In this document: one piece after another, positions 13,877-53,459 of the stretch
Layout: each line of letters begins with the position of its first letter
How positions within the stretch are numbered: position 1 is the stretch's first letter
From: Candidatus Zixiibacteriota bacterium
GTDB lineage: Bacteria > Zixibacteria > MSB-5A5 > GN15 > FEB-12
Direction: 5' to 3'
Assembly: GCA_040753875.1 (NCBI GenBank)
Contig: JBFMDV010000023.1
Location: forward strand, 1-64,000
Length of the DNA stretch: 64,000 nt
The notes under the pieces: generated by a model
What the model was told of the DNA's origin: nothing
The model's database searches: none
The model's input: the letters and a program-made list of their open reading frames with translations, nothing else
Translations under genes and position numbers: made by a program

Positions 13877-14617
13877 ATGAATCGACTCCCTCGGCAACTG
13901 ACTCCGCTACTGGTGATCTTTGTGGTCGCTATAGGCAGTCTGTTCGTCGCACGTCATCTGCTCGTCCCAAGGACTTTCGGCGAATACGGTCACTATCGCG
14001 CCGCCGCGGTAGGGGAGATCGCCGGACAGGAGTTCACCTATGCGGGATCGCTCGCGTGCGCAGATTGTCATAGCGATGTCTACGACCTCAAGCAAAACTC
14101 ATTTCATGCCGGCGTGGCATGCGAGGTCTGTCATGGACCGGCCAAAAGACATGTCGACGCCCCGGATGAGTTCGTCCCGGAGAAGCCGAAAGGCCGTGGG
14201 TTCTGCCCCTTGTGTCACGGTTATAACCCATCGCGCCCCTCCGGTTTTCCGCAGATTTTGCCCGATGTTCATAATGCCGGAAAAGCGTGTATGACCTGTC
14301 ACGAGCCGCATAATCCGACGCTACCGCACCCACCGGAGGAATGCAGCGCTTGCCATCGCGAGATAGCCAGCAAAAAGATGGTCTCGCGGCACACGAACGT
14401 AGCATGTACCGTTTGTCATACCGTTCCCCCCGAACATTATCAAAACCCGCGACTGGCGCTGGCCAAGAAACCTCTCAGCAAGGCGGTGTGTGGCCAGTGT
14501 CATGCGAGCGACGCTTCGAGTTCAAGAGAAATCCCACGGGTCGATATGACCGCGCACGGCGGTCGGTACCAATGCTGGGATTGCCATTACCCCCATTATC
14601 CGGAGGCAATACAATGA
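13877..14617 (+). CDS. membrane-anchored octahaem c-type cytochrome
   Basis: 246 aa with an N-terminal anchor or uncleaved signal (LLVIFVVAIGSLFVA, residues 11-25) and eight CxxCH haem sites: starts at residues 61, 82, 110, 138, 156, 177, 205 and 233. All are plain CxxCH, with many additional histidines available as distal ligands. It is a small electron-carrier cytochrome facing the periplasm, too short to be a multihaem nitrite or sulfite reductase. The downstream gene overlaps its stop by four bases (ATGA), and a Tat ferredoxin plus NrfD protein follow, so it should be the periplasmic electron exit or entry point of a quinone-linked membrane complex. Confidence 0.9.
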   Translation: MNRLPRQLTPLLVIFVVAIGSLFVARHLLVPRTFGEYGHYRAAAVGEIAGQEFTYAGSLACADCHSDVYDLKQNSFHAGVACEVCHGPAKRHVDAPDEFVPEKPKGRGFCPLCHGYNPSRPSGFPQILPDVHNAGKACMTCHEPHNPTLPHPPEECSACHREIASKKMVSRHTNVACTVCHTVPPEHYQNPRLALAKKPLSKAVCGQCHASDASSSREIPRVDMTAHGGRYQCWDCHYPHYPEAIQ

Positions 14618-15387
14618 AGAAACTCGGTACGGATATGCCCCGGCGAGAATTCCTTGAGAATTGCTCGCGCGCCTTGCCCCCCTGGCTGCTTGTTTTTTCG
14701 GTGGTCGGTTCGGCCGAGTCCCTGGTAGCAGACGAAGAAGGCCAATATGATGCCTCAAAGCACAACTATGCCATGGGCGTCGATATTCATCGATGTATCG
14801 GGTGTGGTCGTTGTGCCGATGCCTGTAAGAAGGAGAATAAGGTCCCGCTGGAGCCCACTTTCTTCCGAACCTGGGTCGAGCGATACATAATTCCGACGAG
14901 CGGGGAGGCAAGAGTCGACAGCCCCAACGGCGGTATTGACGGATTCCCTGAACCACAGGAGGATATCGATGTCCTCCGGACCTTCTTCGTCCCCAAGCTG
15001 TGTAACCACTGTGCCAATCCACCGTGCGTGCAGGTCTGTCCTGTCGGGGCGACGTTTGAGTCGCGCGACGGCGTCGTTCTGGTAGATGATTCCTATTGCG
15101 TCGGTTGCCGGTATTGTATCCAGGCATGCCCCTATGGCGCTCGGTACCTGCATCCGGAAAAGAAAGTCGCCGATAAGTGCACATTCTGTTACCATCGGAT
15201 CACAAAAGGACTGGCGCCGGCATGCGTCGAGGTATGTCCGACCCAGGCGCGAATTTTCGGAGAATCCGGCCAACAGAGCAGCCCGCTCCGACATTTCTTG
15301 CGCTTCAATGATGTGAGCGTGCTCAAACCCTGGCTTAATACCTCGCCGAAAGTGTACTATGCAAACGCAGATGGGGAAGTGAGGTAA
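14614..15387 (+). CDS. Tat-exported four-cluster ferredoxin subunit (DmsB/NrfC/DsrO type)
   Basis: 257-residue iron-sulfur subunit. The start at 14614 overlaps the cytochrome stop and is preceded by CGGAGG. The N-terminus has a twin-arginine signal, PRREFLENC, then a hydrophobic stretch ending near AES, so the mature protein lies in the periplasm. Cysteine groups: CIGCGRCADAC, CNHCANPPCVQVC, CVGCRYCIQAC and CTFC...CVEVC, sixteen cysteines for four [4Fe-4S] clusters, with the insert between first and second groups typical of the family. It should carry electrons between the NrfD-type quinone subunit and the octahaem cytochrome. No molybdopterin catalytic subunit is encoded here. Confidence 0.92.
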   Translation: MKKLGTDMPRREFLENCSRALPPWLLVFSVVGSAESLVADEEGQYDASKHNYAMGVDIHRCIGCGRCADACKKENKVPLEPTFFRTWVERYIIPTSGEARVDSPNGGIDGFPEPQEDIDVLRTFFVPKLCNHCANPPCVQVCPVGATFESRDGVVLVDDSYCVGCRYCIQACPYGARYLHPEKKVADKCTFCYHRITKGLAPACVEVCPTQARIFGESGQQSSPLRHFLRFNDVSVLKPWLNTSPKVYYANADGEVR

Positions 15388-15390
15388 CCC

Positions 15391-16599
15391 GTGTTATTCG
15401 CATCGATTGCGGCGGTCCAGAACCTTCCCGAAGCGACCGGCTACATGTATCCGAATGAATTTGAGCTCCATTGGGGCTTGCTTATTGTCGTTTACCCTTA
15501 TTTGACCGGTCTGGTCGCCGGGGCCTTTATTCTGGCGTCTCTGGAACGGGTATTTAACGTAAAAGCTCTTCAGCCGGTGTATCGCCTGTCCCTTTTGACG
15601 GCCCTGTCGTTTATGCTGGCGGCCCCGCTTCCCCTTCTGGCCCACCTGGGTCACCCGGAGAGAGCTCTGGAAATGTTCCTGACACCACACACGCAGTCGG
15701 CCATGGCCATGTTTGGCTTTGTATACGCCTGGTATCTTGCGGTGGTATTATTGCTGGAAATCTGGTTTGACTACCGTAAGGCGATCGTAATGTGGTCCCG
15801 TGAATCGAAAGGTGTCAGGAAGTTCATCTACAAAGTGTTGAGTCTCGGAGCTACAGATACCACAGACGCCGCCGTCAATTTCGATGACAAAATCGGTCGG
15901 GTCATCACCATTATCGGTATCCCCTCGGCTTTCTTGCTGCACGGCTATGTCGGTTTCATCTTCGGCTCGGTCAAGGCGAACCCGTGGTGGAGCTCCGTGC
16001 TTATGCCGATCGTGTTTCTCTTTTCAGCGATTGTCTCGGGCATCGCTTTGGTGCTGCTCGTCTACATGGTTACAACGATGCTTCGCTGGAAGCAGATAAG
16101 CATGACCTGTCTCAACAAGCTGGGGGAATTGCTATTGTATGCCCTTATTGTCGATTTCGCTCTCGAGTTGCTCGATTTCATACATCGCTTATATGAATCG
16201 GAAGAATCCATCAATATCCTCCGCGAGATGATCTCAGGGCGGTTATTCATCAGCCTCATCGTCACACAGATTCTACTCGGAACCGCAATCCCCATGCTCT
16301 CATTGGCCTGGGCCCGCTTCGGTCGTCTGCCCGATGAAATGCGTAAAATCTTGTTCCTGATCGCTGCTTTCCTTGTTCAAGTTGGTATCTTCAGCACGCG
16401 CTGGAATGTCGTGATCGGAGGACAGCTCTTCTCGAAGAGTCTGCGAGGATTAACCGTGTACAAGTTAGAGCTCATGGGCCTTGAGGGTCTGTTCATGGCT
16501 ATGGCGCTGCTGGCGCTTCCGTTTGTCATCCTCTTTGTCCTCACGAAGTTGTTGCCACCCTGGGCACCATCTGAAGCATCAGTCTCAACCGAGACCTAA
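15391..16599 (+). CDS. NrfD/PsrC-family quinone-interacting membrane subunit
   Basis: 402 aa, about nine to ten membrane segments. PLPLLAHLGHPERALEMFLTPHTQSAMAMFGF contains the conserved H-LGHPERA region of NrfD/PsrC/DsrP proteins, and RWNVVIGGQLFSKS near the C-terminus matches the family's W-N-V-V-I-G-G-Q signature. The chain starts with GTG at 15391, three bases after the ferredoxin stop. NrfD-type subunits exchange electrons with menaquinone in the membrane and may couple this to proton transfer. Third gene of the octahaem cytochrome operon and apparently the last, as the next gene is on the opposite strand. Confidence 0.9.
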   Translation: MLFASIAAVQNLPEATGYMYPNEFELHWGLLIVVYPYLTGLVAGAFILASLERVFNVKALQPVYRLSLLTALSFMLAAPLPLLAHLGHPERALEMFLTPHTQSAMAMFGFVYAWYLAVVLLLEIWFDYRKAIVMWSRESKGVRKFIYKVLSLGATDTTDAAVNFDDKIGRVITIIGIPSAFLLHGYVGFIFGSVKANPWWSSVLMPIVFLFSAIVSGIALVLLVYMVTTMLRWKQISMTCLNKLGELLLYALIVDFALELLDFIHRLYESEESINILREMISGRLFISLIVTQILLGTAIPMLSLAWARFGRLPDEMRKILFLIAAFLVQVGIFSTRWNVVIGGQLFSKSLRGLTVYKLELMGLEGLFMAMALLALPFVILFVLTKLLPPWAPSEASVSTET

Positions 16600-17348: not shown

Positions 17349-18566
17349 ATGACGTCTATGATTACCGATGTCAATCACCGCGTTCATACCGATAAATGGG
17401 GCATTGCCGAGCACGTTATCCGATTGGAGACATCGATCATCCGCGAGATACTAAAGATCTCGTCGCAGCCGGGCGTGATCTCCTTTGCGGGAGGGCTGCC
17501 TGCCCCGGAGTTGTTTCCGATCTCTGATCTCAAGAAGATCATGGTGGAGGTGCTGGACAAGTATGGTCCCGCCAGCTTGCAGTACGCGCTCTCTCGCGGC
17601 ATCACGCCGCTTCGGGAGCTGATCGCAAAGCGTGCGACAGAGCGCGGGACACCATCGGATGTGGACAATATTCTCGTCACGGCGGGCGCGCAGCAAGGGA
17701 TCGAGCTTCTGGCACGGGCGTTCGTGGACCGGGGCGATTACGTCCTGGTCGAGAACCCTACCTACGTCGGCGCGCTGCAGGCGTTCAATTACTACCAGGC
17801 GCGCTACGTGACAGTGGCTATGGATGACGAGGGGATGATCACCGACCAGGTCGAGCAGATGCTCATCAAGTACAAACCGAAACTTATCTACACGGTCTCG
17901 AATTTCCAGAATCCGACAGGGATCAGCATGTCGGAAAGCCGGCGCCGGGAGCTGGTCGAGCTGGCGATCAAATACGAAGTGCCCATCATGGATGATAATC
18001 CGTATGGCGACATTCGGTTCATGGGACAGCGCATTCCTACCGTTAAGTCGATGGGGGGGGATTCCGTGATCGCACTGCGGACTTTCAGCAAATTGGTCTG
18101 TCCGGGCTTCCGGATAGGCTGGATGAACGGCCCCAAACCGATCATGCATCAATTCGAGAAAGTGAAGCAGTGCTCTGACCTTCACACCAATTCGTTCAAT
18201 CAATATGTGCTCTATGAGTATGTTGTCCGCGGCCTGCTGGAGCCACACATCGAGAAGATCAAAGCCGACTATCTGATGAAGCGGAATCTAATGCTCAAGA
18301 CGCTGGAGGAGAGCTTCCCTTCGGAAGTCACCTGGACCCGCCCCGAAGGAGGGCTGTTCCTCTGGTTGACCCTTCCGTCTAAAATGTCGGCCAAGGAACT
18401 GTTCCCGAAGGCGGTGGCCCAGAAGGTGGCCTATGTGTACGGGTCGCCGTTTTTTGCCAACGGCGGCGGCGACAACACTATGCGCCTCAATTATTCCACG
18501 GCGTCTCCGAGCGAGATCGTGGAAGGGATCAATCGGCTGGCCAAGCTGATCAAGGAGAATCTCTGA
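17349..18566 (+). CDS. PLP-dependent aminotransferase, 2-aminoadipate aminotransferase (LysN)-like
   Basis: 405-residue fold-type I aminotransferase. The Schiff-base lysine is Lys248 in LRTFSKLVCPGFRIGW; VSNFQNPTGISMS and MDDNPYGDIRF are the PLP-contacting segments, and FAGGLPAPELFP near the N-terminus is typical of the LysN/MocR-like branch. These enzymes take 2-aminoadipate, leucine, aromatic or other amino acids with 2-oxoglutarate. GGGAAAGG precedes the ATG at 17349; an ATG at 17358 is an alternative. It is monocistronic by context, ending in an intrinsic terminator before the DapF-like gene. The exact substrate is open. Confidence 0.85.
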   Translation: MTSMITDVNHRVHTDKWGIAEHVIRLETSIIREILKISSQPGVISFAGGLPAPELFPISDLKKIMVEVLDKYGPASLQYALSRGITPLRELIAKRATERGTPSDVDNILVTAGAQQGIELLARAFVDRGDYVLVENPTYVGALQAFNYYQARYVTVAMDDEGMITDQVEQMLIKYKPKLIYTVSNFQNPTGISMSESRRRELVELAIKYEVPIMDDNPYGDIRFMGQRIPTVKSMGGDSVIALRTFSKLVCPGFRIGWMNGPKPIMHQFEKVKQCSDLHTNSFNQYVLYEYVVRGLLEPHIEKIKADYLMKRNLMLKTLEESFPSEVTWTRPEGGLFLWLTLPSKMSAKELFPKAVAQKVAYVYGSPFFANGGGDNTMRLNYSTASPSEIVEGINRLAKLIKENL

Positions 18567-18672: not shown

Positions 18673-19524
18673 ATGAAGATGCTGTTTTTCAAATATCACG
18701 CACTCGGCAACAGTTTCCTTGTAGTCGAATCGGGTCCATCCCGGCGGACCCGGACCGAGTTGTCCCGACTGGCCCGGACGATCTGTGATCCGCAGCGAGG
18801 GATCGGCGCCGACGGCGTGCTCCATCTGTCTGCACACAAGGGAGTAGATCGCAGGGTGGATGTATACAACGCCGACGGCAGCTGGGCGGAGAGGTCGGGG
18901 AACGGGCTTCGGATCGCCGCCTTGTACCTGGCGATGCGCGCTCCAACAAAGCGCCAATTCACATTCCACATGGGGGGCGAGCGATGTGTGGCTGAGCTCA
19001 CGAATAGAATCTCGGGCGGGCAGTTAGTTCGTGCCGATTTGGGGAAGCCGGACTTTGTTGCTCGCAACGTGCCGATGCGGGCGGATCGGAAATACGTTAT
19101 CAACAGCCCGATCAAAGTGGGCGGCACGAGGCTCGACCTCACCTGTTTGTCCGTCGGCAACCCGCACTGTGTGTTGTTCGTTGATGGTTTCGACTTCGAC
19201 TGGAAAAAGCTGGGGCGCGAACTAGAGACGGCATCGATCTTCCCAAAAGGGACAAACGTAGAATTTGTCCGACCGATCTCCCGTCGAAAGCTGCAGGTCA
19301 GGGACTGGGAGCGGGGTGTCGGTGCGACGGGATCGTCCGGTACCGGCGCCGCCGCAGCCACCTGTGCGGCAGTCATGCTTGGCCTGGCCGAAAGAAACTG
19401 CGAAGTGCAGTTCGAATCCGGCTCGCTCCGGGTGTACTGGCGTCAGGATACCGGCAGCATAGAACTCTCGGGTCCGGTGCAGTTCATCGCACAGGGCGAG
19501 TTTCAATTGCCGCCGAAACTCTGA
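18673..19524 (+). CDS. diaminopimelate epimerase (DapF) homologue with both active-site cysteines replaced by serine
   Basis: 283 aa, normal length and fold of DapF, which interconverts LL- and meso-diaminopimelate with two cysteine bases. Here the first site reads YNADGSWAERSGNGLR, so Ser75 replaces cysteine in the C-G-N-G motif; the second reads ERGVGATGSSGTG, so Ser222 replaces cysteine in A-C-G-T-G. In addition the N-terminal GND motif reads GNS (12-14). Other substrate-contact elements, such as GNPHCV (162-167) and ERG (213-215), are kept. The enzyme therefore should not work by the usual thiol mechanism and may act on another substrate or have lost activity. The PabA/TrpG gene starts 9 bp downstream. 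Confidence 0.85.
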   Translation: MKMLFFKYHALGNSFLVVESGPSRRTRTELSRLARTICDPQRGIGADGVLHLSAHKGVDRRVDVYNADGSWAERSGNGLRIAALYLAMRAPTKRQFTFHMGGERCVAELTNRISGGQLVRADLGKPDFVARNVPMRADRKYVINSPIKVGGTRLDLTCLSVGNPHCVLFVDGFDFDWKKLGRELETASIFPKGTNVEFVRPISRRKLQVRDWERGVGATGSSGTGAAAATCAAVMLGLAERNCEVQFESGSLRVYWRQDTGSIELSGPVQFIAQGEFQLPPKL

Positions 19525-19533
19525 TGGCACTCC

Positions 19534-20127
19534 ATGGTATTCGTTCTGGACAATTACGACTCATTCACGTTCAACCTCGTGCAGTATTTTTCTACGCTTG
19601 GGGTAGAGGTGAAAGTGGCACTTAATGACCAAGTATCCATCGAGGATGTGCAACGTGTGAGTCCGAGCGCAATTGTGTTGTCACCGGGCCCGGGGCGTCC
19701 CGAGAATGCGGGTATCATGAATGCGCTGATCAGGACGTTGGCGGGCTCCTGTCCCATTCTCGGCGTCTGCCTCGGACACCAGGCGATCGCCCAGGTATAC
19801 GGCTCAACTATCGTATATGCATCGGCCATCATGCACGGAAAGGTGTCGACTGTCAGGCACGACAATTCACGCCTTTACCAGGGGGTTGCCAATCCGTTCA
19901 GCGCGACACGGTATCATTCGCTGGCGGTCGACAGGAAAACTCTGGCCCCAGAATTACGGATTACCGCCTGGAGTGATGATGGGACTATAATGGGAATCGA
20001 ACATCTGACAATGCCGGTGTTTGGCGTTCAATATCATCCGGAATCGATCATGACACCGGACGGCATGACTATTCTGCAAAACTTCTGCAAGATAGCAGCC
20101 TCGCATCGCGCCGGTACTGCCGCGTGA
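19534..20127 (+). CDS. pabA: anthranilate / aminodeoxychorismate synthase glutaminase subunit
   Basis: 197-residue class I glutamine amidotransferase. It releases ammonia from glutamine for the chorismate-using partner in tryptophan (TrpG) or folate (PabA) synthesis. Triad: Cys79 in GVCLGHQAIAQ, His168 and Glu170 in VQYHPESIMT; the N-terminal VLDNYDSFTFNLVQY and SPGPGRPENAG are signature segments. Neither partner (TrpE or PabB) lies nearby, so the choice between TrpG and PabA is open, and one protein may serve both. Follows the DapF-like gene by 9 bp. Its use of chorismate fits the shikimate operon 3 kb downstream. Confidence 0.9.
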   Translation: MVFVLDNYDSFTFNLVQYFSTLGVEVKVALNDQVSIEDVQRVSPSAIVLSPGPGRPENAGIMNALIRTLAGSCPILGVCLGHQAIAQVYGSTIVYASAIMHGKVSTVRHDNSRLYQGVANPFSATRYHSLAVDRKTLAPELRITAWSDDGTIMGIEHLTMPVFGVQYHPESIMTPDGMTILQNFCKIAASHRAGTAA

Positions 20128-20160
20128 TGAGACAACAACCGGCGTACGAGAGATGTGACC

Positions 20161-21486
20161 ATGCGCCCTCGTGCTGAAACCATAAGTGAGGGTGCAGGTA
20201 AGCACGCGGTGCCCCGAACGGGGTGGCATGCCTGGCTGGACGAATACCTCTTTCATGTGCGCCTGTTTACGCGCAACGCCCGGTTGTACCTGCTGGCGGC
20301 GTTCCTGGTTGGGATCAATTTCGAGGTATTTCAACTACTTCTGAACCTGTACCTGAGGGAGCTTGGCTTTACAGACACGCGAATCGGACTCGTGAACTCC
20401 TTCCGCGCCGTTGGGATGGCGTTCAGCGCGATCCCCGTGGCGATGGCGCTGGCACGGATACGATTGAAACCAATGCTTCTGGCGGCTGTTGGGCTGTTCG
20501 CACTCTGCAGCTACTTTGTGGTCAGTACATCGATCTTTCCCGTCGTGCTCGCTTTCTCCGCATTGGCGGGCACGGCCTTCACTGTCACGCGTGTGGCCGC
20601 GGCGCCGTTTTACATGCGCCATTCAACGCCCAGAGAGCGCACGCACCTGTTTTCGTTCTCGTTCGGGGTGATGCTGCTGGCGGCCATGGTCGGTTCTCTG
20701 ACGGCCGGCAAGGCGGCGGAATTGATCGCCGAGTGGTCCGGTAGTCTGCTTTTGGGGTATCGCTACACGCTGTACGCGACGATCGCCATTAGCTTGCTGA
20801 GTATTATACCATTCTCATTGATCCGCGAGCACAGTGTCTCGAACGACGAGAATCGCCTGTCGTTCTCTCGGGAACAATGGCGGCGGCGCAGGGGATTTCT
20901 CTTCAGGATCGGTTTCGCCAATTTCCTCATAGGTCTGGGGGCCGGATTGATCATTCCTTTCCTGAATCTTTATTTCCGGGACCGTTTTGACCTGGAGCCT
21001 GACACGATCGGCTTGTTCTATTTCTGTGTTACGTGCGCCATGTTTGCCGGGACCGTGGCGGCACCGATGCTTACCAGGCGATTCGGTCTGGTGCGTGCTA
21101 TCGTACTCACGCAGCTGGCTTCGATACCGTTTATGCTGGTGCTTTCGTACACATACTATCTGCCGGTGGCATTCGGAGCATTCGTTATCCGTGGTGGGCT
21201 CATGAATATCGGCGTACCGCTGGGAACCAATTTCGGCATGGAGATGTGCGAGCGACGCGAGCAGGGGCTGGTCAACGCGCTCCTGATGGTCAGTTGGACC
21301 TCCGCCTGGATGATATCGGCCGCGATCGGCGGGCGACTTATCGACTTGTACGGCTACTCGCTTACCTTCAATATTACGATCGCTCTCTATATTGTCTCGT
21401 CGGTTTTCTACTACTGGTCTTTTCGGAACGCGGAACGTCGCAACGGTCGCCACGGCTGGGCAATCACGGAAGGGGAGTCGGCATAG
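20161..21486 (+). CDS. major facilitator superfamily transporter
   Basis: About 441 aa with some twelve hydrophobic segments in two halves separated by a charged loop (REHSVSNDENRLSFSREQWRRRRG). GFTDTRIGLVNSFRAVGMAFSAIPVAMALARIRLKP carries the loop 2-3 pattern of MFS proteins. GTG at 20155 is an alternative start two codons upstream. Substrate unknown; several MFS drug or metabolite exporters share this look. No co-regulated partner is obvious; it lies between pabA and argS. Confidence 0.8.
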   Translation: MRPRAETISEGAGKHAVPRTGWHAWLDEYLFHVRLFTRNARLYLLAAFLVGINFEVFQLLLNLYLRELGFTDTRIGLVNSFRAVGMAFSAIPVAMALARIRLKPMLLAAVGLFALCSYFVVSTSIFPVVLAFSALAGTAFTVTRVAAAPFYMRHSTPRERTHLFSFSFGVMLLAAMVGSLTAGKAAELIAEWSGSLLLGYRYTLYATIAISLLSIIPFSLIREHSVSNDENRLSFSREQWRRRRGFLFRIGFANFLIGLGAGLIIPFLNLYFRDRFDLEPDTIGLFYFCVTCAMFAGTVAAPMLTRRFGLVRAIVLTQLASIPFMLVLSYTYYLPVAFGAFVIRGGLMNIGVPLGTNFGMEMCERREQGLVNALLMVSWTSAWMISAAIGGRLIDLYGYSLTFNITIALYIVSSVFYYWSFRNAERRNGRHGWAITEGESA

Positions 21487-52667: not shown

Positions 52668-53459
52668 ATGAAATATGCCTACGTAACGACCAACCTGATC
52701 GACCTATGGGCCGAGCCGCGCTACAATTCCGAGCGTGCCAGCCAGCTTCTGTTTGCCGAATTGGTGACCTGGGCGGACGAGCAGGATGGCTTCGCGCGGG
52801 TACGGCAGGTTGACGGCTACACCGGTTGGGTGGATGCTCGTTTCCTTCAGGGAATCGACTGCGAGGCGTACGAGAAGTACGGGAGGGCAGCGACCTGGGT
52901 TGTCTCGGCAGTGCAAACGCCAATAATGGGCGTACGGAAGGGCGTTCCAATGGCGCCGCATTATCTCTACCATGGTACGAGAATTCTCATCAAACGCTCG
53001 CGGTCCCTGTGGTCGAAAGGCCTTTTGCCGGATGAAGCGGTGTTTCTCGTGAAGTCGACGGCTGTAGCACCTTCGCCGGTCAAATCTGTTGGTCTCGTAG
53101 CAAAGATCGTTAGAGAGTCACACAAATTCCTTGGTGTCCCGTACCTGTGGGGCGGTGTCAGCCCCGCCGGATTCGACTGTTCTGGATTTGTGCGTGCAGT
53201 GTTCGGTCGATTCGGAGTCTACCTCCCGCGCGACACCAAGGACCAGATCAACGCCGGCTCACCGGTGACTCGCGACGAAGTCAGGGCAGGCGACCTCCTC
53301 TTTTTCAAACGCCACGTGGGAATTGCCCTCGACAATAAGCGTCTGATCCACGCCTCACTCGCGGGCGGCGGCGTGCGGATCAATTCCCTCGATGCGAATG
53401 ACCCGGACTATCGCGCCGACCTGGGTCGGGATTTCAACCAGGCACGGAGAGTCCTGTAA
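52668..53459 (+). CDS. SH3b / NlpC-P60 cell-wall peptidase, YkfC-like
   Basis: 263 aa: two bacterial SH3-like segments (about 1-65 and 75-130), then an NlpC/P60 domain with Cys171 (GFDCSGFVRAVF), His216 (RHVGIAL) and His228 (LIHASL). It resembles YkfC, the gamma-D-glutamyl-L-diamino acid endopeptidase that trims muropeptides. No signal peptide is visible, so it should act in the cytoplasm, as YkfC does. The stop overlaps by one base with the next ATG of a dipeptide epimerase, which is the expected recycling partner. Confidence 0.85.
   Translation: MKYAYVTTNLIDLWAEPRYNSERASQLLFAELVTWADEQDGFARVRQVDGYTGWVDARFLQGIDCEAYEKYGRAATWVVSAVQTPIMGVRKGVPMAPHYLYHGTRILIKRSRSLWSKGLLPDEAVFLVKSTAVAPSPVKSVGLVAKIVRESHKFLGVPYLWGGVSPAGFDCSGFVRAVFGRFGVYLPRDTKDQINAGSPVTRDEVRAGDLLFFKRHVGIALDNKRLIHASLAGGGVRINSLDANDPDYRADLGRDFNQARRVL

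What the first reader, a model, noticed from the sequence alone, without database searches (positions are those of the whole stretch)
18673..19524. DapF homologue with both catalytic cysteines changed to serine
Seen: the first active-site motif reads AERSGNG (Ser75, codon TCG at 18895) and the second ATGSSGTG (Ser222, codon TCC at 19336), where DapF has Cys in both. The N-terminal GND reads GNS. Known: diaminopimelate epimerase uses those two cysteines as acid and base; Cys-to-Ser mutants lose normal racemisation. Both changes are single-base-type Cys/Ser substitutions in an otherwise well kept fold with GNPHC and ERG intact. Inference: this branch either works on another substrate with serine chemistry, is a binding protein, or is a relict beside a real DapF elsewhere.
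Basis: partly seen in the sequence, partly recalled or inferred. Interest (0 to 1): 0.72.

Follow-up and report, generated by a model that had tools for sequence, protein, structure and literature searches.

The report
DapF enzyme with serine catalytic pair
An entire order of uncultured Zixibacteria keeps, under strong selection, a cell-wall/lysine enzyme (DAP epimerase, DapF) in which both catalytic cysteines are serines, in genomes that lack the usual genes for making the enzyme's substrate, so what it does is an open and testable question.

Summary
ORF 18673-19524 encodes a DapF homologue (TIGR00652, 209.8 bits, cutoff 114.7) with Ser75 (TCG) and Ser222 (TCC) where characterised DapFs have catalytic Cys. 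The genome is Candidatus Zixibacteria, and this is its only DapF. Ser/Ser is no error or isolated decay: 61 of 63 DapFs from the same order are Ser/Ser, with dN/dS about 0.09-0.19. Across the phylum (96 proteins) all four combinations occur (66 SS, 17 CS, 3 SC, 10 CC), and no residue other than Ser or Cys is seen at either position. The residues that bind the DAP distal end and amine are invariant in the order. The AlphaFold model (pLDDT 93.7) fits closed, inhibitor-bound Anabaena DapF best (Z 39.7). The genomes lack DapB (0/129 by DapB_C; DapB_N 0/20 above cutoff), DAP dehydrogenase (0/129), LysX above cutoff (0/20) and DapA (1/20), yet 19 of 20 have a MurE with the DAP-type DNPR motif. A canonical DAP-synthesis role is therefore unlikely. 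My best reading: a DapF descendant that still binds, and probably slowly protonates/deprotonates, salvaged DAP or a close analogue through Ser hydroxyls. A non-catalytic role and a new reaction remain open. New variant of a known kind.

The parts
18673..19524 (+). DapF homologue, 283 aa, Ser/Ser variant
   Evidence: TIGR00652 209.8 bits, PF01678, fold Z 39.7 to 9mro; only PF01678 locus in the genome
18895..18897 (+). Ser75 codon (TCG), position of the first catalytic Cys
   Evidence: aligned to catalytic Cys
19336..19338 (+). Ser222 codon (TCC), position of the second catalytic Cys
   Evidence: aligned to catalytic Cys
18883..18906 (+). Order signature WAE[K/R]SGNG (Trp71 to Gly78): Trp71 and Lys/Arg74 beside Ser75; hydrophobic residue or Thr at 74 in the other families
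   Evidence: K/R at 74 in 61 of 63 order members, M/L/F/I/V/W/T elsewhere in the phylum
19309..19314 (+). Glu213-Arg214, distal amino-acid recognition residues (with Asn66, Asn163, Asn195)
   Evidence: invariant in f1-f4; roles from Anabaena DapF structures, PMC12039745
17349..18566 (+). LysN/aminoadipate-type aminotransferase, conserved upstream neighbour of DapF in most families
   Evidence: best PDB sequence matches 1x0m, 3aov, 2egy; synteny
19534..20127 (+). TrpG/PabA-type glutamine amidotransferase, start of the tryptophan/aromatic block
20155..21486 (+). MFS transporter, recurrent downstream neighbour of DapF (cluster c2, in 12 of the compared loci)
   Evidence: PF07690; synteny; no PDB sequence relative
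52668..53456 (+). SH3 + NlpC/P60 putative murein-peptide endopeptidase; same kind as one in the murein-salvage cluster of family f16
   Evidence: PF00877 89.3 bits, SH3_16

Best explanation
Shown: a vertically inherited DapF whose two catalytic cysteines have become serines, kept by purifying selection in an order of Zixibacteria that has neither DapA nor DapB nor DAP dehydrogenase in almost all genomes tested but has a MurE with the DAP-type motif. Inferred: the protein still closes around a DAP-like bis-amino acid, the distal end held by Asn66, Asn163, Asn195, Glu213 and Arg214, the proximal alpha-carbon placed between Ser75 and Ser222. The two hydroxyls, at the N-termini of two helices and in this order flanked by Lys/Arg74, act as a weak acid/base pair, giving a slow epimerisation or alpha-proton exchange. 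A low flux would suffice because DAP is probably obtained ready-made from other bacteria's murein rather than synthesised. The substrate (salvaged LL- or meso-DAP, or the thioether analogue lanthionine) and the activity itself are inferences.
For: Sole DapF in the genome. Ser/Ser in 61 of 63 order members, also in f5 and f19. Only Ser or Cys ever occurs at 75 and 222 in 96 proteins, and two members nested in the Ser/Ser clade carry Cys at one site (G085 Cys/Ser, G004 Ser/Cys), as expected if a proton-carrying side chain is required. dN/dS 0.09-0.19 in close pairs of the order. N13, G48, N66, N163, N195, E213, R214 invariant in the order. Model in a DapF fold, best fit to closed aziDAP-bound 9mro. 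DapB_C 0/129, DapB_N 0/20 above cutoff, Ddh 0/129, DapA family 1/20, LysX 0/20 above cutoff, controls positive each time; MurE with DNPR in 19 of 20. LysA of f6 and f16 lies in a cluster with alanine racemase, LD-carboxypeptidase, a putative L-Ala-D/L-Glu epimerase and (f16) NlpC/P60 and PBP4, pointing to murein salvage. A natural catalytic Ser is known in the same fold: Ser/Cys hydroxyproline epimerase and Ser/Thr dehydratase (PMC4113996).
Against: Cys-to-Ser mutants of this enzyme class are reported to have strongly reduced activity (PMC11602996; PMC12039745); no natural Ser/Ser epimerase is known to me. Family f17 lacks DapF: no match in its four genomes (all over 90% complete), and in G122 the aminotransferase is followed directly by ArgS, so the function is dispensable there. 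The salvage cluster was seen only in f6 and f16; in the window's own genome only one NlpC/P60 gene was seen. No activity or substrate was or could be measured.
Confidence: 0.42

Rival explanations
1. Non-catalytic role: the protein has lost epimerase chemistry and is kept as a ligand-binding sensor or as a partner protein, as E. coli DapF is for the RNA pyrophosphohydrolase RppH.
For: E. coli DapF with both catalytic Cys changed to Ala still binds and stimulates RppH (PMC4227774). The DAP-making genes are missing. Losing one or both Cys in many families looks like relaxed demand for catalysis.
Against: If the two positions were free, Ala, Gly or Thr should appear among 96 proteins; only Ser and Cys do. 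The pocket residues are invariant, more than a partner surface alone would need. The presence of RppH in Zixibacteria was not tested.
Confidence: 0.27
2. New reaction: the Ser/Ser enzyme is a lyase or dehydratase (one-base elimination) on a DAP-like amino acid with a beta leaving group, such as lanthionine, cystathionine or a hydroxylated DAP.
For: In the same fold, the natural Ser/Thr member of the proline racemase superfamily is a dehydratase (PMC4113996). Cys-to-Ser glutamate racemases perform elimination (PMC8142540). The order has its own active-site signature: Trp71, Lys/Arg74, Ser221, Tyr8.
Against: No genome context for such a pathway was found; neighbours are an aminotransferase, an MFS transporter and aromatic/ArgS genes. 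All-Cys, mixed and all-Ser proteins share the same pocket and often the same locus, which suggests a shared ligand.
Confidence: 0.16
3. Lanthionine-type wall: Zixibacteria replace DAP in peptidoglycan by lanthionine and the DapF homologue makes the meso isomer from LL-lanthionine.
For: Fusobacterium nucleatum lacks the DAP pathway and uses lanthionine (PMC11602996). Anabaena and Arabidopsis DapF epimerise lanthionine as fast as DAP, attributed to Gly instead of Gln44 (PMC12039745); the window protein has Gly48 and Glu73-Arg214. Several cysteine-synthase/CBS paralogues are present.
Against: The F. nucleatum DapF homologue turned out to be a histidine racemase. The Zixibacteria paralogues match ordinary cysteine synthase and CBS structures and cannot be told from a lanthionine synthase by sequence here. 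LysA in f6, f7 and f16 points to DAP. A slow Ser/Ser enzyme fits a bulk wall precursor poorly.
Confidence: 0.12
4. Ordinary DapF misread: sequencing error, or isolated decay beside a normal DapF.
For: None found.
Against: No second PF01678 locus; Ser/Ser in dozens of independently assembled genomes; purifying selection.
Confidence: 0.01

Closest known systems
Diaminopimelate epimerase DapF (TIGR00652; structures 9mro, 3ejx, 2q9h C73S mutant, 2q9j C217S mutant)
   Same: Fold, length, about 34-36% identity over the whole chain to 9mro and 3ejx, DAP distal-site residues, SGNG/GTG positions of the catalytic pair
   Different: Both catalytic thiols are hydroxyls; Trp71 and Lys/Arg74 beside the first; the genome lacks DapA, DapB and Ddh
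Fusobacterium nucleatum HisR (FN1732), a DapF homologue in a DAP-pathway-less bacterium
   Same: DapF-like fold in a Gram-negative that cannot make DAP or lysine (PMC11602996)
   Different: HisR keeps both Cys and racemises histidine; only 15% identity in the structural alignment (9cr6); the Zixibacteria protein keeps the DAP distal-site residues
Proline racemase superfamily Ser/Cys and Ser/Thr enzymes (4-hydroxyproline 2-epimerase B9JQV3, trans-3-hydroxyproline dehydratase B9K4G4)
   Same: Natural use of Ser in place of a catalytic Cys in this fold (PMC4113996)
   Different: Only distantly related (about 11-16% identity in structure); one Ser, not a Ser/Ser epimerase; proline-type substrates
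E. coli DapF as RppH activator
   Same: A second role of DapF that does not need the catalytic Cys (PMC4227774)
   Different: E. coli DapF is also an active Cys/Cys epimerase; RppH in Zixibacteria untested

Membership tests
DapF (diaminopimelate epimerase) as a sequence family | Score above the TIGR00652 equivalog cutoff and PF01678 gathering score over the whole length | tested here: met
   209.8 bits vs 114.65; 144.6 vs 34.7
DapF (diaminopimelate epimerase) as a sequence family | Two-domain DapF fold | tested here: met
   AlphaFold pLDDT 93.7; 9mro Z 39.7, rmsd 1.6 over 272 residues
DapF as the classical two-cysteine epimerase | Two catalytic Cys (H. influenzae Cys73/Cys217) | tested here: not met
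   Ser75 and Ser222
DapF as the classical two-cysteine epimerase | Residues binding the DAP amine and distal end (Asn13, Asn66, Asn163, Asn195, Glu213, Arg214) | tested here: met
   All present, invariant in the order; roles from PMC12039745
DapF as the classical two-cysteine epimerase | Set in a genome that makes DAP (DapA, DapB) | tested here: not met
   DapA family 1/20, not in G000; DapB_C 0/129; DapB_N 0/20 above cutoff
DapF as the classical two-cysteine epimerase | Epimerises LL-DAP to meso-DAP | not testable with these tools
   Needs purified protein
Lanthionine epimerase / lanthionine-type wall | Lanthionine synthase in the genome | tested here: inconclusive
   Cysteine-synthase/CBS-like paralogues present, sequence does not separate them from a lanthionine synthase
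Histidine racemase (HisR/CntK) | Closer in structure or sequence to HisR/CntK than to DapF | tested here: not met
   9cr6 Z 26.0 and CntK 6jiw Z 25.4 vs DapF 9mro Z 39.7

The most novel reading that the evidence does not exclude
The Ser/Ser protein is a working enzyme that moves the alpha-proton of a DAP-like bis-amino acid with two serine hydroxyls (the first natural all-serine member of the cofactor-independent racemases that I know of), serving an unrecognised wall or amino-acid route in a phylum without the DAP pathway.
Probability: 0.25. Interest if true: 0.85.

Novelty: new variant of a known kind. Interest (0 to 1): 0.62.

Why it matters
The two-thiol mechanism is the textbook explanation of cofactor-independent racemases. 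A natural clade that replaced both thiols, together with close relatives holding all four Cys/Ser combinations on the same scaffold, is a ready experiment on how much of the chemistry needs sulfur. The missing DapA/DapB/Ddh across the phylum, next to a conserved DAP-type MurE, also raises the question of where Zixibacteria get the cross-linking residue of their wall: murein salvage, as reported for Fidelibacter (PMC11652737), or an unknown route.

Tried and rejected
Second DapF elsewhere in the genome: none. DAP dehydrogenase bypass: none in 129 genomes. LysW/aminoadipate route: LysX model 0/20 above cutoff; I take the sub-cutoff hits to be general ATP-grasp proteins. LysA-like hit in the window's genome (C9): a polyamine-type decarboxylase beside spermidine synthase, not LysA. 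DapL-like hits: none over cutoff, mostly general aminotransferases. Lanthionine synthase by sequence: not separable from cysteine synthase. MFS neighbour as a known muropeptide permease: no PDB relative by sequence. Compensating cysteine: Cys38 is invariant in the order but also present in most Cys/Ser and three Cys/Cys relatives, so not specific. Literature searches for Zixibacteria with diaminopimelate or lysine biosynthesis gave nothing that looked relevant from titles and abstracts. A search with four joined E. coli proteins was insensitive for DapA and DapB and was replaced by family models.

Full report
What was checked. The ORF 18673-19524 (+) translates to 283 aa with Ser75 in AERSGNG (TCG, 18895) and Ser222 in ATGSSGTG (TCC, 19336). 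It is DapF by TIGR00652 (209.8 bits, cutoff 114.65) and PF01678, and the alignment to Arabidopsis and Anabaena DapF places the serines opposite the catalytic cysteines.

Where it is. The window is contig C23 of a 3.29 Mb genome listed as 100% complete. The named relatives found by sequence are Candidatus Zixibacteria (GN15) MAGs. PF01678 finds one place only in the genome (two half-domains of the same ORF), so there is no normal DapF elsewhere.

Conservation. I collected 96 DapF proteins of the phylum and read positions 75 and 222. In the window's order (families f1-f4) 61 of 63 are Ser/Ser, one Cys/Ser (G085), one Ser/Cys (G004). In the rest of the phylum f5 and f19 are Ser/Ser; f9, f10, f12, f13 and f14 Cys/Ser; f7 Ser/Cys; f6, f8, f15 and f16 Cys/Cys; f18 has one Cys/Cys and one Cys/Ser. 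Totals: 66 SS, 17 CS, 3 SC, 10 CC. No other residue occurs at either site. The ML tree needs 10 changes for all state labels (103 rows including outgroups; shuffled mean 32.8), so the states are clustered but changed repeatedly, and the Cys in G085 and G004 is nested inside Ser/Ser clades. dN/dS in the closest pairs is 0.07-0.19, and 0.09-0.19 in the closest pairs of the order. Serine codons have turned over synonymously. This is a maintained gene.

Pocket. Asn13, Gly48, Asn66, Asn163, Asn195, Glu213 and Arg214 are invariant in the order. In Anabaena DapF the equivalents of Asn66, Glu213, Arg214, Asn163 and Asn195 hold the distal amino acid, and Gly in place of Gln44 goes with tolerance of lanthionine (PMC12039745). 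The order has its own signature beside Ser75: Trp71 and Lys/Arg74 (61 of 63), where other families have mostly Glu or Pro and a hydrophobic residue or Thr. Whether Lys/Arg74 helps the serine is not known. The AlphaFold model (pLDDT 93.7) matches DapF structures best, first the closed inhibitor-bound 9mro (Z 39.7, rmsd 1.6 over 272 residues), well above histidine racemases (Z about 25-26).

Pathway context. DapB C-domain: 0 of 129 genomes; DapB N-domain: 0 of 20 above cutoff. DAP dehydrogenase: 0 of 129. DapA family: 1 of 20 (G007 only). LysX: 0 of 20 above cutoff. Positive controls rang each time. MurE was found in 19 of the 20 (the exception is 81% complete) and all 19 carry the DNPR motif, typical of DAP-adding MurE (own knowledge). 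True LysA is above cutoff only in f6, f7 and f16. In f6 and f16 it lies beside alanine racemase, an LD-carboxypeptidase (Peptidase_S66) and an enolase-superfamily protein resembling L-Ala-D/L-Glu epimerase, and in f16 also PBP4, NlpC/P60+SH3 and a C39-like peptidase (families were scanned in one of the two loci and read across by position and sequence start). That looks like use of murein peptides. The window has a related NlpC/P60+SH3 gene at 52668-53456. Fidelibacter, of another phylum, is a cultured precedent for dependence on exogenous muropeptides (PMC11652737).

Neighbourhood. DapF usually follows a LysN/aminoadipate-type aminotransferase (17349-18566) and precedes an MFS transporter, ArgS and AroA, with trp genes inserted in some genomes. 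The aminotransferase is broad in its relatives and does not name a substrate. In G122 (f17) the aminotransferase is followed directly by ArgS, with DapF and the transporter missing, and no f17 genome has a DapF match.

How it may work. Shown: conserved Ser/Ser, conserved pocket, selection, missing DAP synthesis. Inferred: a DAP-like ligand bound between two serines that act as weak acid and base, at a low rate adequate for a salvage economy. Precedent for natural catalytic Ser in the fold exists in the proline racemase superfamily (PMC4113996). Against it, engineered Cys-to-Ser mutants in this class lose most activity (PMC11602996). Rivals are a non-catalytic role (E. coli DapF without its cysteines still activates RppH, PMC4227774), a one-base elimination (precedents), and a lanthionine wall.

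Verdict. A true, clade-wide variant of DapF in a phylum with an unexplained source of its wall cross-linker. Family membership by sequence and fold is met; the defining catalytic feature is not. I found no paper on Zixibacteria DAP metabolism in the open library, which is not proof that none exists.

Noticed in passing
L143-L149 and other MurE loci (e.g. G000:C25:90530-91900): MurE motif GKGHE reads GKGAE or GKGSE in the seven f1-f4 genomes checked and GKGHE in the other families checked: a possible correlated change near the DAP site.
   Followed up: partly
L281 (G047) and L282 (G116): LysA inside an apparent murein-peptide salvage cluster (alanine racemase, LD-carboxypeptidase, putative L-Ala-D/L-Glu epimerase; in L282 also NlpC/P60 and PBP4) in Zixibacteria families with Cys/Cys DapF.
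   Followed up: partly
L250 (G122, family f17): The conserved aminotransferase-DapF-MFS-ArgS locus lacks DapF and the MFS gene; none of the four f17 genomes has any DapF match.
   Followed up: partly
L122 and L124 (uncultured Clostridia MAGs named Lapin): DapF homologues with Ala instead of the first catalytic Cys (AGNA) and Ser at the second, with carbamoyl-phosphate synthase-like ORFs close by in L122.
   Followed up: no
L120 (Acidobacteria MAG), L117 (Terriglobia MAG), L121, L123, L125, L126: Sporadic DapF homologues outside Zixibacteria with Ser at one or both catalytic positions.
   Followed up: no
window 13877-16599: Cluster of a multihaem cytochrome-like protein (CxxCH repeats), a TtrB/DsrO-like iron-sulfur protein and an NrfD/DsrP-like membrane protein: a possible respiratory complex.
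   Followed up: no
L286:8074-9279 (G109, family f14): LL-DAP aminotransferase-like protein (462 bits, below the 593 cutoff) in a genome without DapA or DapB matches.
   Followed up: no
G004 C252 and C80 (L071, L072): Two different DapF copies in one MAG, both Ser/Cys; may be two strains or a duplication.
   Followed up: no
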